Source: Clostridia bacterium (GTDB lineage Bacteria > Bacillota > Clostridia > Christensenellales > Borkfalkiaceae). Taken from it: DNA of 64,000 nucleotides. Position numbers and translations under genes: made by a program. The notes under the pieces are model-generated. The model had not been told where the DNA came from. It saw nothing but the letters and a program-made list of their open reading frames with translations, and made no database searches. The DNA lies in NCBI GenBank assembly GCA_017399945.1, contig JAFQAQ010000024.1, positions 1-64,000 on the forward strand, in the 5' to 3' direction. Of the stretch, positions 29,393 through 32,859 are shown one piece after another (position 1 is the stretch's first letter; each line of letters opens with the position of its first letter).

Positions 29393-29629
29393 CTATTCCT
29401 TTTTTTCATTTTTAGATTCTTTTATCCTGTTTACAATATAACAAATTAAAAGAAAAATTGCAATAAAAATAACACAACCTATTAATAAAACTACGTCAGT
29501 ATCAATTGAAGAAACGTTTACGTTAAAAAGTTTTAATATAAAACAACCTATCACAAAACAAAATATTGCAAGTATAAGTTCAAGCAATGCTTCAAGCAAA
29601 TTATTCCAAATTTTAGATTTCTTTTTCAT
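29393..29629 (-). CDS. Two-span small membrane protein
   Basis: 78 residues: basic start, two hydrophobic segments (about 13-35 and 44-68) and a Lys/Glu tail. No family recognised. The ATG lies 7 bp after the stranded native rlmD stop (29637-29639), implying that it was coupled to rlmD before the insertion. Confidence 0.6.
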   Translation of the reverse strand: MKKKSKIWNNLLEALLELILAIFCFVIGCFILKLFNVNVSSIDTDVVLLIGCVIFIAIFLLICYIVNRIKESKNEKKE

Positions 29630-29636
29630 TATAAAA

Positions 29637-29672
29637 TTATATCTTACTTAAATTAACAACCGTTTCGACGTG
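29637..29672 (-). pseudogene. Stranded original 3' end of rlmD
   Basis: Minus-strand codons read HVETVVNLSKI-stop, beginning within CACGTCGA at 29665-29672. Joined to the rlmD body at the matching CACGTCGA (31481-31488) they give a typical RlmD ending, FPQTK-HVETVV-x-LS. Base use is A/T-rich like the host, unlike rlmD's present end. Confidence 0.75.
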
Positions 29673-29683
29673 GGTCATAATAT

Positions 29684-29735
29684 CAAAAGGTATATTTTTG
29701 TGCCAAATACGGGGGTTTTAAAGCCAAAAGGTATA
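29684..29735. repeat. Direct repeat near the islet end
   Basis: CAAAAGGTATAT occurs at 29684-29695 and again at 29724-29735, 40 bp apart, between the stranded rlmD end and the nitrilase-GDPD stop. Confidence 0.6.
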
Positions 29736-29742
29736 TATTTTA

Positions 29743-31371
29743 TTACTTGCGCTTGAAGTAATCTTCTTTCACCGCATTGTATATCGTCAAATAATCATTC
29801 GTCAAAACAGTGTCTATGCCCATTTCAAAATAGTGTTTCGCTTCTTCGGGATCATCCGCCCAAAATACATTGCAAAGAATTCCATGGACATGCGCTTTAT
29901 CAATGCTTTCTTGATTGAAATACGGCTTAAATAACTGCACCTTATAGGCGCCAAGAGCAATAGCGCGGTCAACGATAGAAGTTGGTTCCTTATTGCCATC
30001 CCATCCCACACAGACTTTGAGGTCCGGTGCGTATTCCATCACCTGTTTGATGATTTCATCATTGGTCGTCATAAAGTAAATGTGCTTTTCACAGTCGTAC
30101 TTTCGAATGAGCGCAACTATTTCCTCAATCATAGGATTTTCAAAAGCTGCATCCCAAATCTTGACGTGAATATTCATAATAACTCGCCCTGCGAATTTTT
30201 GTAGAATCTCTTCAAAGGTTGGGATTTTCAAGCCCTTGAATTTTTCGCCGTGCTTTGCACCAAAGTCAAGCTGCAAGAGCTCCTCGTATGTATGCTCATA
30301 AATTTTTCCGCTTCCGTCACTTACACGGTCAAGCGTCGAGTCGTGGCAAGAAACAAGCATACCATCCTTCGTCGACCACAGATCAAATTCGATCTCCTCT
30401 GCTCCGAGAGCGACCGCCGCACCGAATGCGGGCATACTGTTTTCGGGCGCAATTGTATTGAAGCCTCGGTGTGCGCAAAGACGGGGATATTTCATAACAC
30501 CGTCAAAAGGAACGACCGATGCGCCACCGTTTCGATAGAGCCACGGTCTGCGCCCCTCTTCAATATATTCGTAGTGCGATTTCAGCTTACCAAGATGCCC
30601 TGCAGGCTTGTAATATTTGTTCTTCGGGTCAATTTCGCAAACACCAAGTCCTACACGGCTTTCCATGTTGAGAAGCATTTCGCCCTTTGGAGAAACTACC
30701 ATACTGCAGCCGCAAAGCTCGGAGTCCTCTCCAAGCGATACAGATGCGCGGATCAGGTATGCATTTGTGTTATAGCAAAGAAATTTATTGATGATTGAAA
30801 GCGCATTGTGACTGTCGGTGCGTTGCAAAGAGCAACCGATAATGATATCTACATTCTCTCGTGCAATTTTTGCAAAATTTTCGTAAAAATAAAAATCATA
30901 GCAGGTAAGAAAAGCGAAACGCAAGCCCTCTATTTCCAAAATGTAGGGAGAGGCAACCTCATAGCTGTATGCCACGTCCAACTCGTGCCCGCCCTCAGCA
31001 TCGGTCTTAACTTCGCTGGGCGCGGGATGCGCCTTGAAATATCGACCAACGATATTGCCGCATCTGTCAAAGGCATGAGTGGTATTTCTAATACCGGTTT
31101 CGGTTTCATATCCCGCATTGACAAACACAAGCGAATTACATCTCTTTGCTGTTTCACTTGCCTTGCGTAAAAGAATAGAATTATATTGCTTGACCGCACG
31201 ATAAAATCCATCCTTTCCCTTCACGTCCGCAAGAGCATCGCTGTATTCGGGAAGAACGATTAAATCCAGACTTTCATCGCATTTGTCAAGCAAAGCCAAA
31301 AGACCTTCAAAGCACTGTTTTATATCCTTCTCTTCGAAGGAATATTTGGGTTGAATCACACAAACTTTCAT
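29743..31371 (-). CDS. Nitrilase-superfamily amidohydrolase fused to glycerophosphodiester phosphodiesterase
   Basis: 542 residues from ATG 31371, with AAGGAG 8 nt upstream; an upstream in-frame start has none. N-terminal nitrilase/carbon-nitrogen hydrolase (about 1-270) with catalytic triad E42, K113 and C157 (FLTCYDF). C-terminal GDPD (about 295-540): CAHRG (H301, R302), PEN, E328, D330, H343, the standard acid-base set. The two halves could act in turn on a phosphodiester with an amide or nitrile. Cytosolic; no signal. G+C-rich and alone in the rlmD islet. Each domain is common; this fusion is not one I recognise as standard. Confidence 0.88.
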   Translation of the reverse strand: MKVCVIQPKYSFEEKDIKQCFEGLLALLDKCDESLDLIVLPEYSDALADVKGKDGFYRAVKQYNSILLRKASETAKRCNSLVFVNAGYETETGIRNTTHAFDRCGNIVGRYFKAHPAPSEVKTDAEGGHELDVAYSYEVASPYILEIEGLRFAFLTCYDFYFYENFAKIARENVDIIIGCSLQRTDSHNALSIINKFLCYNTNAYLIRASVSLGEDSELCGCSMVVSPKGEMLLNMESRVGLGVCEIDPKNKYYKPAGHLGKLKSHYEYIEEGRRPWLYRNGGASVVPFDGVMKYPRLCAHRGFNTIAPENSMPAFGAAVALGAEEIEFDLWSTKDGMLVSCHDSTLDRVSDGSGKIYEHTYEELLQLDFGAKHGEKFKGLKIPTFEEILQKFAGRVIMNIHVKIWDAAFENPMIEEIVALIRKYDCEKHIYFMTTNDEIIKQVMEYAPDLKVCVGWDGNKEPTSIVDRAIALGAYKVQLFKPYFNQESIDKAHVHGILCNVFWADDPEEAKHYFEMGIDTVLTNDYLTIYNAVKEDYFKRK

Positions 31372-31427
31372 TATTGATTCTCCTTCCGATATGTTATACC
31401 GTACTGCTGTAAAAGGCAACTTCACTT

Positions 31428-31439
31428 GCCCGCAAGGGC
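31428..31439. repeat. Small hairpin near the islet's rlmD end
   Basis: GCCC-GCAA-GGGC stem-loop in the leader before the nitrilase-GDPD gene. No convincing promoter: TTGCCT and TATAAC are only 15 nt apart. Confidence 0.4.
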
Positions 31440-31443
31440 GAAC

Positions 31444-32859
31444 TTAGTTGTCGAGTCGTCGTGTGAGACACACGACAGACTCGACGTGCTTGGTTTGAGG
31501 AAACATATCAAAAAGCGTAATTGAATTCACTTTATATAAACGTTTATCGCTTTCATTTTTAACGATACCATTATTTCCAACAACTAAACTGCCCGTCAAA
31601 ACACCTAAATCCCTTGCTAGCGTCGCGGGATTACACGAAACGTAAATAACGTTATCTATATTGTTTTCTATGAGAGATTGAATTACCGAAAGGTCACAGC
31701 CTTTTCTTGGAGGGTCTAACACTACCGTAACTCGTTCACCATTTACTACTTCTTTTTCAAGTACTTTTGGTAAAATTTCTTCACATTTACCAGTATAGTT
31801 AACAATTTTTGATTTTAGACCGTTACTTTCAGCTAGTTTGTTCGATAGTTCAACAGCTTGTGGAATAATTTCTATACCAATAGCCTTTTTTGCGTTTTTT
31901 GCCAAAATTGAAGTCATCAGACCGGCACCACTATACGCGTCAATTACAACTGATTGACAATCAGCGTTAACAGTTTTTTCAACGTGAGAATATAATTTTT
32001 CGCAAATGTTATCGTTTACTTGCATAAAACTTTGCACGCTCATCGGAAATTTTATCGATAACATTTCACCGTAGTATTCATTATCGCCGTAAACTTTATA
32101 GAATTCGTCGCCGTATATTACGTTTGAATTCGTTGTATTAACGTTAACAAAAAGAGAAAACTTGTTTGGTAAATATAGCCTTAATATATCAACAAAGCGT
32201 TGCATTCCATCAACTTTTTTCTTATTAATAACCAACGTAATAATTAGATTGCCCTTAACTTCTCTTACGGTTATTTCTCTTAAATCACCCTTACGAGTAA
32301 ATTGGTCGTATCCCTTTAAATTAAATTCTTTTGCGTATTGTTTAACGGATTGTATAATACCCCTTGTCCAATCGGCGTTTATTAAACAATCGTCAATTTC
32401 AACTACTCTATGTGAATTTTCTGCATAAAACCCAACGGCAAGATTATCATCAACGTTAGAAATCGGTAACTGTAGTTTATTCCTATATCTAAACTCATTA
32501 TCACACCCAACTACGTCCGTAACTTGATTATCGATAAACGCAACTTTTTTCAGAGTATTTTCAACAGATTGCTTTTTTAATAACAATTGTTTTTCATATA
32601 AAACGTGTTGAAGTTGACACCCACCGCATTTACAAAATACTTCACACGGTGGAGTTACTCTATCACGCGATTTTTCAGTTACTTTTAATAACTTTGCAAA
32701 AACACATTTAGACGTTACTTTTAAAACTTTATATTCAACAACTTCACCCAATAAAGCAAACGGAACGAAGATAACTTTATCTTCGTCCTTAATAATCCCT
32801 TCTCCATTGTTTCCAATAGAAATAATTTTCCCTGTTTTAACGTCGTTTTTCTTAATCAT
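31444..32859 (-). CDS. rlmD: 23S rRNA (uracil-1939-C5)-methyltransferase RlmD
   Basis: 471 residues: N-terminal TRAM domain (about 1-60), [4Fe-4S] ligands C72, C78 and C81 (CKCGGC), and methyltransferase core with DPPRKGC and the nucleophile in VSCNPATLARDLG. Full length and functional-looking. The last codons (after HVE) are element-derived: SVVCLTRRLDN, G+C-rich, overlapping a long dyad at 31449-31484. The native end lies at 29637. Start shares one base with the stop of the upstream gene. Confidence 0.92.
   Translation of the reverse strand: MIKKNDVKTGKIISIGNNGEGIIKDEDKVIFVPFALLGEVVEYKVLKVTSKCVFAKLLKVTEKSRDRVTPPCEVFCKCGGCQLQHVLYEKQLLLKKQSVENTLKKVAFIDNQVTDVVGCDNEFRYRNKLQLPISNVDDNLAVGFYAENSHRVVEIDDCLINADWTRGIIQSVKQYAKEFNLKGYDQFTRKGDLREITVREVKGNLIITLVINKKKVDGMQRFVDILRLYLPNKFSLFVNVNTTNSNVIYGDEFYKVYGDNEYYGEMLSIKFPMSVQSFMQVNDNICEKLYSHVEKTVNADCQSVVIDAYSGAGLMTSILAKNAKKAIGIEIIPQAVELSNKLAESNGLKSKIVNYTGKCEEILPKVLEKEVVNGERVTVVLDPPRKGCDLSVIQSLIENNIDNVIYVSCNPATLARDLGVLTGSLVVGNNGIVKNESDKRLYKVNSITLFDMFPQTKHVESVVCLTRRLDN
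31449..31484 (-). terminator. Dyad at the new 3' end of rlmD: attachment-site arm or terminator
   Basis: GTCGAGTC-x-GTCGTGTG pairs with CACACGAC-x-GACTCGAC around a 2-4 nt loop. It adjoins the CACGTCGA core. No T tract follows, so an attachment-site role is as likely as termination. Confidence 0.5.

What the first reader, a model, noticed from the sequence alone, without database searches (positions are those of the whole stretch)
29637..31488. A one-gene islet inserted in the 3' end of rlmD, with the native end left behind
CACGTCGA occurs at 29665-29672 and 31481-31488, in both cases as the His-Val-Glu codons of RlmD. Reading rlmD up to 31481 and continuing from 29672 reconstructs FPQTK-HVETVVNLSKI-stop, a standard RlmD ending in host-like A/T-rich codons. 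The present end (SVVCLTRRLDN) is G+C-rich and forms a dyad. The next gene starts 7 bp after the stranded stop. Integration at the 3' end of rum/rlmD-type genes is known for some streptococcal ICEs; here the unit is only about 1.8 kb with a single cargo gene and no recombinase, so it may be a trans-mobilised cassette or remnant.
Basis: partly seen in the sequence, partly recalled or inferred. Interest (0 to 1): 0.85.

Follow-up and report, generated by a model that had tools for sequence, protein, structure and literature searches.

The report
Mobile one-gene cassette at rlmD's end
A single foreign gene has been slotted cleanly into the tail of a ribosome-modifying gene in an uncultured bacterium of the class Clostridia, and it belongs to a family of small cassettes that some relatives carry at the same kind of spot, sometimes in a row, apparently moved by enzymes that other mobile elements supply.

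Summary
RlmD ends in an imported tail (HVESVVCLTRRLDN); 1,816 bp further on, the same core CACGTCGA carries a stranded native tail (HVETVVNLSKI). Between them lies one gene: a carbon-nitrogen hydrolase fused to a glycerophosphodiester phosphodiesterase.

It is not a one-off. A 78-bp right end (two repeats 41 bp apart plus the core) was verified in 17 of 251 genomes of the same family and scored strongly in two genomes of another family, beside varied cargo. At 15 of 21 right ends an ORF stops within 6 bp (2.1% of random points). Some cassettes share a leader with a ribosome-binding site, some stand in tandem, and one cassette, 94% identical from core to core, sits in different contexts in two genomes. 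These look like discrete mobile gene cassettes without a recombinase.

Large serine recombinases of other rlmD-targeting elements are the likely movers. The right end resembles that of a rlmD-integrated prophage with tandem recombinases more than those of rum-type elements, although only the latter were found in cassette genomes. Movement in trans is inferred; no excision was seen, and no empty site of the same species was available.

The parts
31444..32859 (-). rlmD (471 aa with the imported tail)
   Evidence: NCBIfam TIGR00479 rumA above cut-off
31481..31488 (-). left core CACGTCGA (attL side), host HVE codons
   Evidence: same place in L032, L033, L034
31444..31480 (-). element-supplied rlmD tail SVVCLTRRLDN-stop
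   Evidence: cassette left-end weight matrix
31450..31485 (-). left-end dyad, two 8-bp stems with one unpaired T; the outer stem includes part of the core
   Evidence: fold; 6 of 16 pairs doubly changed among 6 left-end sequences
31380..31413 (-). leader TTTACAGCAGT..GGTATAACATATCG..AGGAG with ribosome-binding site
   Evidence: same motif or close variants at 8 other places in 7 other loci
29743..31371 (-). cargo: carbon-nitrogen hydrolase + glycerophosphodiester phosphodiesterase fusion, 542 aa
   Evidence: Pfam PF00795 and PF03009; PDB matches; 3,275 relatives at E<=1e-20 among 7,999 scored
29665..29742 (-). right end: two direct repeats 41 bp apart plus core
   Evidence: repeat D2; alignment A1; model R1 E=6.4e-21 here, a sequence the model was built from
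29665..29672 (-). right core CACGTCGA (attR side)
29637..29663 (-). stranded native rlmD tail TVVNLSKI-stop
29393..29629 (-). next gene, 78 aa, starts 7 bp after the stranded stop (flank, not part of the unit)
   Evidence: no Pfam family

Best explanation
The islet is one member of a family of site-specific gene cassettes. A typical unit has a left end that supplies a new RlmD tail, often a leader with a ribosome-binding site, usually one gene, and a right end of two repeats that begins at the gene's stop codon and finishes with the core. SHOWN by sequence: the unit's borders are the two cores; the same right end stands beside different cargo in other genomes; units occur in tandem; one unit occurs in two different contexts with its borders at the cores. 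INFERRED: a large serine recombinase, supplied in trans by another rlmD-targeting element (a phage or conjugative island), joins a circular cassette to the core in rlmD; RlmD stays functional because the cassette brings a replacement tail; the recombinase is no longer in this genome, so the unit is now stranded; and the cargo enzyme is expressed from the cassette's own leader. Which recombinase is cognate is not settled.
For: Two-junction structure and a second islet in the genus. Right-end pattern in 22 of 251 family genomes (24 places; reversed-pattern control 4), 17 of them verified by an HMM of the whole end; strong scores in 2 further genomes of another family among 186 class genomes. The right core is followed by an HVE-type rlmD tail reading at 19 of 21 sites. 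ORF stop within 6 bp of the right end at 15 of 21 sites against 2.1% of random points (14 of 20 if the cassette shared by L065 and L067 is counted once). A whole cassette shared at 94.4% over 815 bp between L065 and L067, from core to core. Tandem units in L034 and L059. Recombinases of the rum type carry the core at their 3' end followed by an rlmD-like tail in 22 of 25 loci held, and lie downstream of an rlmD-family gene on the same strand in 13 of the 14 genomes where both are on one contig. A prophage in G534 sits between rlmD and a right core whose 30-nt arm scores +9.6 with the cassette matrix, against -7.2 at best for 23 rum-type arms.
Against: No excision, circle or transfer observed, and no same-species empty site. 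No cognate recombinase in this genome. The prophage-type recombinase (G534, G037) occurs in 0 of 17 cassette genomes, while the rum type occurs in 3 of 17 against 2 of 234 others (Fisher P = 0.0024), so co-occurrence points to the type whose arms fit less well. The prophage arm itself is far below cassette arms (+9.6 against 33-44). Left ends do not separate the types: prophage ends score 16.6 and 18.5, ordinary-looking rlmD tails up to 16.1. Cassette-end patterns found nothing in viral contigs. Six of 21 right ends lack an abutting stop codon. rlmD was seen upstream in only 8 of the 17 family genomes; in the other 9 the fetched stretch held none. In G145 the right end lies upstream of rlmD and is not followed by an rlmD tail. 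One right core (L066) reads HVG and one (L062) YVE.
Confidence: 0.75

Rival explanations
1. Ordinary decayed island (CIME): a larger conjugative island or prophage once sat here and lost everything but one gene and its two ends.
For: Att-flanked, recombinase-less islands and tandem accretion are well known, 1.2-13 kb with cargo in S. salivarius (PMC7563491 passages). G037 shows such a decayed prophage at rlmD.
Against: Different cargos sit between the same kind of leader and a right end abutting the stop codon in many genomes, which independent deletions would hardly produce; no island genes were recognised in the unit.
Confidence: 0.15
2. The rum-type single serine recombinase (clade of P0002) is the cognate mover, not the prophage-type pair.
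For: It shares the core, targets rlmD, and lies beside cassettes in G515, G606 and G622; it is enriched in cassette genomes.
Against: Its right arms do not match cassette arms (mean -21.6 bits over 23 arms, ungapped, in register with the core); identity averages 11.3 of 30 (17 arms) against 17.4 of 30 for the prophage arm.
Confidence: 0.3
3. Cassettes move by homologous recombination or transformation between shared flanks, with the ends only relics.
For: Units share conserved ends and, where rlmD is seen, lie at one locus, so flanking homology exists.
Against: The L065/L067 unit is shared exactly between the cores in different surroundings (rlmD on one side in L065, a recombinase gene in L067), with no longer shared flank around it.
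Confidence: 0.1
4. Assembly artefact or chance octamer repeat.
For: The octamer alone is common (5 in window); the genome is a draft in 29 contigs.
Against: Another MAG (SVHP01000014.1) has the same two ends around other cargo; the 78-bp right end recurs.
Confidence: 0.02

Closest known systems
rum (rlmD)-targeting single serine integrases of streptococcal ICEs and phages
   Same: Same target gene and kind of core; integration swaps the rlmD tail; attR lies in the integrase gene (PMC4701971 passages; our recombinase loci; phage hits named _rum at 53%)
   Different: Those elements carry their own integrase and are large; this unit is 1.8 kb with one enzyme gene and different right arms
CIME / tandem-accreted islands
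   Same: Ends kept, no recombinase, tandem at one site (PMC7563491, PMC3146451 passages)
   Different: Here units share a leader and a right end that abuts the stop codon; not visibly derived from islands
Staphylococcal and enterococcal cassette chromosome (SCC, ECC)
   Same: Serine-recombinase islands; SCC sits in the 3' end of another rRNA methyltransferase gene, rlmH (recalled); several attR sites in many ECCs (PMC6222049, outline and section 10 read)
   Different: Different target gene, no ccr genes in the unit; the recombinases P0002 and P0005 score 162 and 141 bits on the CcrB model against a cut-off of 900
Integron gene cassettes
   Same: One gene plus an abutting recombination site, arrayed at one locus (recalled)
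   Different: Cassettes here have their own leader and their ends look like serine-recombinase half-sites; no integron integrase was searched for
CTn5 of C. difficile at rumA
   Same: Insertion in rumA fuses a new C-terminus to it (PMC4320837 passages)
   Different: A conjugative element of about 45.6 kb by the coordinates in the passage; long SHKKPD-type tails as in L131 and L061 are another kind of left end

Membership tests
CIME | flanked by att sites of one recombination system | tested here: met
   cores and conserved ends on both sides
CIME | no recombination or conjugation genes | tested here: met
   single cargo gene
CIME | derived by deletion from an ICE or IME | tested here: inconclusive
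   no island genes recognised; shared leader and abutting end across cargos speak against it
CIME | ends still recognised by a partner element's integrase | not testable with these tools
   needs an excision assay
rum-type ICE or phage | insertion at the rlmD/rumA core with tail exchange | tested here: met
rum-type ICE or phage | own serine integrase at the attR end | tested here: not met
   none in the islet
SCC/ECC | SCC: insertion in rlmH; SCC and ECC: own ccr recombinase genes | tested here: not met
   target is RlmD; no recombinase gene in the unit
integron gene cassette | one ORF with recombination site abutting the stop codon | tested here: met
   4 bp here; 15 of 21 sites within 6 bp
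integron gene cassette | promoterless ORF | tested here: inconclusive
   a conserved leader with ribosome-binding site precedes the ORF, but promoter activity is untested
integron gene cassette | IntI tyrosine integrase and attC site | not tested
   no integron integrase or attC search was made

The most novel reading that the evidence does not exclude
A serine-recombinase counterpart of the integron: a standing cassette site in the tail of rlmD of uncultured Clostridia, filled with standardised single-gene expression cassettes (leader + gene + attachment arm at the stop codon) that are shuffled in tandem by recombinases supplied by phages or conjugative islands.
Probability: 0.35. Interest if true: 0.9.

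Novelty: new variant of a known kind. Interest (0 to 1): 0.75.

Why it matters
It would show that single-gene cassette exchange, best known from integrons, also exists in serine-recombinase form at one house-keeping locus in uncultured Clostridia, and would give a simple handle (the rlmD tail and a 78-bp end) for finding the genes, many of unknown function, that these bacteria trade. How genes become joined so closely to the attachment arm becomes directly testable.

Tried and rejected
Rejected: the octamer as proof by itself (5 in the window). The rum-type recombinase was my first candidate mover; its arms did not fit and I moved to the prophage pair, though co-occurrence favours the rum type. 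Five of the 22 family genomes matching the right-end pattern (G490, G542, G276, G489, G016) were dropped because the right-end HMM did not match them. Of 20 class genomes matching model R1 at E<=0.01 only three (G000, G117, G145) were taken as real; the other 17 have best E between 6e-4 and 0.009. In one search, L014 (E = 0.96) was dropped; the second right end of L074 (L058) is partial (E = 2.5e-4) and was left out of the 20-row alignment and the counts; L262 (G145) is also not in those counts. L012, L032 and L054 are one locus. Led nowhere: four viral contigs pattern scans, Rfam (no match), PADLOC on 10 cargo proteins (none). A pair count with a misplaced structure was replaced by a direct count. 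The phage-recombinase relatives from IMG/VR looked at (4 of 7 loci) showed no recognisable rlmD end. In one search a comparison of the own genome's recombinases with P0002/P0005/P0006/P0007 did not run because my filter skipped them; absence of the two types rests alone.
Full report
The observation. On the minus strand rlmD (32859..31444) ends with HVE-SVVCLTRRLDN. The core CACGTCGA at 31481-31488 is repeated at 29665-29672, where it is followed by TVVNLSKI-stop in the RlmD frame. The octamer occurs five times in the window against 0.79 expected, so the case rests on frame and recurrence, not on the word. The cores are 1,816 bp apart, with 41-51% GC in the windows between them against 26-39% outside, and hold one gene, a 542-residue fusion of a carbon-nitrogen hydrolase (PF00795) and a glycerophosphodiester phosphodiesterase (PF03009) (PDB relatives).

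Relatives. The rlmD search covered 44 genomes of the genus; 37 matched, the nearest at about 55% identity, and 30 loci were held (L002-L031). The tail could be read by my pattern in 25 of the 30; L003, L017, L019, L026 and L028 were not read. Of the 25, L002 is the window itself; L012 (same locus as L032) has both cassette ends; L018 (G037) has a decayed prophage; L029 has a different, long imported tail; L015 has a cassette-like left end (21.0 bits) without a right end found nearby; the other 20 look ordinary (HVETLVCL..K and the like), though the left end of a larger island cannot be excluded in each. L012/L032 repeats the window's arrangement with an 829-bp unit and other cargo: HVESVVCLTRK, then VLLTHVETIVCLNKK.

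A family of cassettes. The left-end pattern found three records in genome contigs; two of them, L033 and L034, are outside the genus, judged by 32-37% RlmD identity. L034 shows two units in tandem behind rlmD, L059 likewise. The right-end pattern with up to two mismatches matched 22 of 251 genomes of the family at 24 places, the reversed-pattern control 4 places; 17 genomes were confirmed by a profile of the whole end, five were dropped. In 8 of these 17 rlmD was seen upstream; in the other 9 the fetched stretch held none. Over the 21 sites counted, which include L034 (2) and L261, the right core is followed by an HVE-type tail at 19; L062 reads YVE and L066 HVG. Among 186 class genomes a sequence model of the end (R1) matched 20 at E<=0.01, of which only G000 (in the model), G117 and G145 (9.1e-17, 3.5e-10; one other family) are convincing. 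G117 has rlmD upstream; in G145 the right end lies upstream of rlmD and no rlmD tail follows it, so it is an exception. An exact pattern matched 2 of 391 class genomes, G000 and G363, both of this family. The end is about 78 bp: two repeats of the form TATACCTTTTGG..TTA..ACCC 41 bp apart, then the core.

Layout. Around 21 right ends an ORF of at least 60 codons stops within 6 bp of the first repeat in 15 cases; random points in the same loci do so in 2.1% (binomial P about 3e-21; 14 of 20, P about 9e-20, if the cassette shared by L065 and L067 is counted once; the sites are related, so P is only a guide). In several the stop codon is part of the repeat (TAAATATACC, TGAGAC). A leader TTTACAGCAGT..GTATAACATATCG..AGGAG or a close variant stands in the window and at eight other places in seven loci (L032, L033, L034 twice, L061, L062, L065, L067; a further match in L072 lies inside a gene and is not counted); the shorter part ATATCG..AAGGAG also occurs before ORFs in L060 and L074. 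Core-to-core distances range from 208 to 3,523 bp over the 16 listed, not all of them bounded by cassette-type left ends. Proteins of these regions include four-helix-bundle proteins (PF05635 in L070; L033, L062, L074 and L261 by DNA similarity), a ribonuclease III-like protein, Fic and Bro-N proteins and a cytosine methylase; of 20 proteins scanned, 13 had no Pfam match at E<=0.01, or 12 of 19 without the prophage gene L179:12113-13147.

Mobility. One cassette is 94.4% identical over 815 bp in L065 (directly after rlmD) and L067 (after a recombinase gene), the match starting at the left core and ending just past the right one. This is the best evidence that the core-to-core unit is what moves.

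Recombinases. A clade of large serine recombinases (query P0002 from G515) is present in 5 of 251 family genomes, the four others at 58-68% identity, the next best matches at 44% or less, and in 25 of 391 class genomes at E<=1e-150 (27 places, 20 loci held). In 22 of the 25 loci held for this clade (5 family, 20 class) the core followed by an rlmD-like tail is found, at the recombinase gene's 3' end in those inspected; L121, L122 and L125 did not show it. Where recombinase and an rlmD-family gene share a contig (14 of the 30 genomes searched) the recombinase lies downstream on the same strand in 13, 15 to 266 kb away; G222 is the exception. Its closest phage matches are Erysipelothrix phage phi1605 and three streptococcal phages named _rum, at 53-54%. 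This is the known rum system: PMC4701971 (passages seen) reports attR inside the integrase gene and exchange of the rumA 3' part. In G534 an element of about 55 kb with phage tail genes and two adjacent serine recombinases (P0006, P0005) lies between rlmD and a right core; I read 19 kb and 14 kb of that contig, not the middle. The 30 bases before that core score +9.6 with the cassette matrix, the best value on both strands of the 19-kb locus, against a mean of -21.6 and a maximum of -7.2 for 23 rum-type arms; cassettes themselves score 33-44 when left out in turn. Left ends separate the types poorly. In G037, same genus as the window, a remnant of the same prophage type follows rlmD, with a recombinase fragment 83% identical. 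Against this, cassette genomes hold the rum type more often (3 of 17 against 2 of 234, P = 0.0024) and the prophage type never (0 of 17). The own genome has three PF07508 proteins and none of either type at E<=1e-60 or 1e-70. I therefore leave the cognate recombinase open, leaning to the prophage type.

The dyad. The left end folds as a hairpin whose outer stem includes part of the core. In six left-end sequences (WIN, L033, L070, L261 twice, L062) 6 of 16 pairs show changes on both sides that keep pairing; L062 keeps only 5 of 8 outer pairs, and most other left ends folded lack the full dyad. It may be a recombinase-binding palindrome or a transcript end; this was not tested.

Cargo. 3,275 relatives at E<=1e-20 among 7,999 scored, the 120 listed at 81-98% identity and with both domains; 11 of 186 class genomes, the own one included, hold one at E<=1e-100, the others at 40-60% identity. 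The gene is thus widespread and was probably captured into the cassette; whether its relatives also lie in cassettes was not examined. Its enzyme activity is inferred from the domains.

Literature. Seen as passages: PMC4701971, PMC7563491, PMC4320837, PMC3146451; outline and section 10: PMC6222049; the rest as search listings only. The seven searches listed no title or abstract start about single-gene cassettes at rlmD; the library lacks most subscription papers and the lists are capped, so this is no proof of absence.

Noticed in passing
L267:6550-6899 (own genome, contig C15): An rlmD-type tail of another kind (..VETLVLLSHKEPDSRISV..) not joined to rlmD, in an 8.1-kb contig that also holds a serine recombinase: perhaps the end of another kind of rlmD-site element at a secondary site.
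   Followed up: partly
L061 and L131: rlmD with long SQKKPD/SHKKPD-type tails; in L061 a cassette right end follows 3.5 kb downstream, so two element types share the site.
   Followed up: partly
L033, L062, L070, L074, L261: Four-helix-bundle genes recur in these cassettes; family shown by Pfam and NCBIfam for L070 only, the others by DNA similarity.
   Followed up: partly
L033:3200-3420, L034 (minus) 7390-7190: Runs of short gtgaagtt/aacttcac repeats between the left end and the leader.
   Followed up: no
L160: An rlmD tail in another family ends in a long dyad, so hairpins at the rlmD end may be more general.
   Followed up: no
L262 (G145) 1085-1149, oriented: A cassette-type right end upstream of rlmD and not followed by an rlmD tail: a rearrangement or another target site.
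   Followed up: partly
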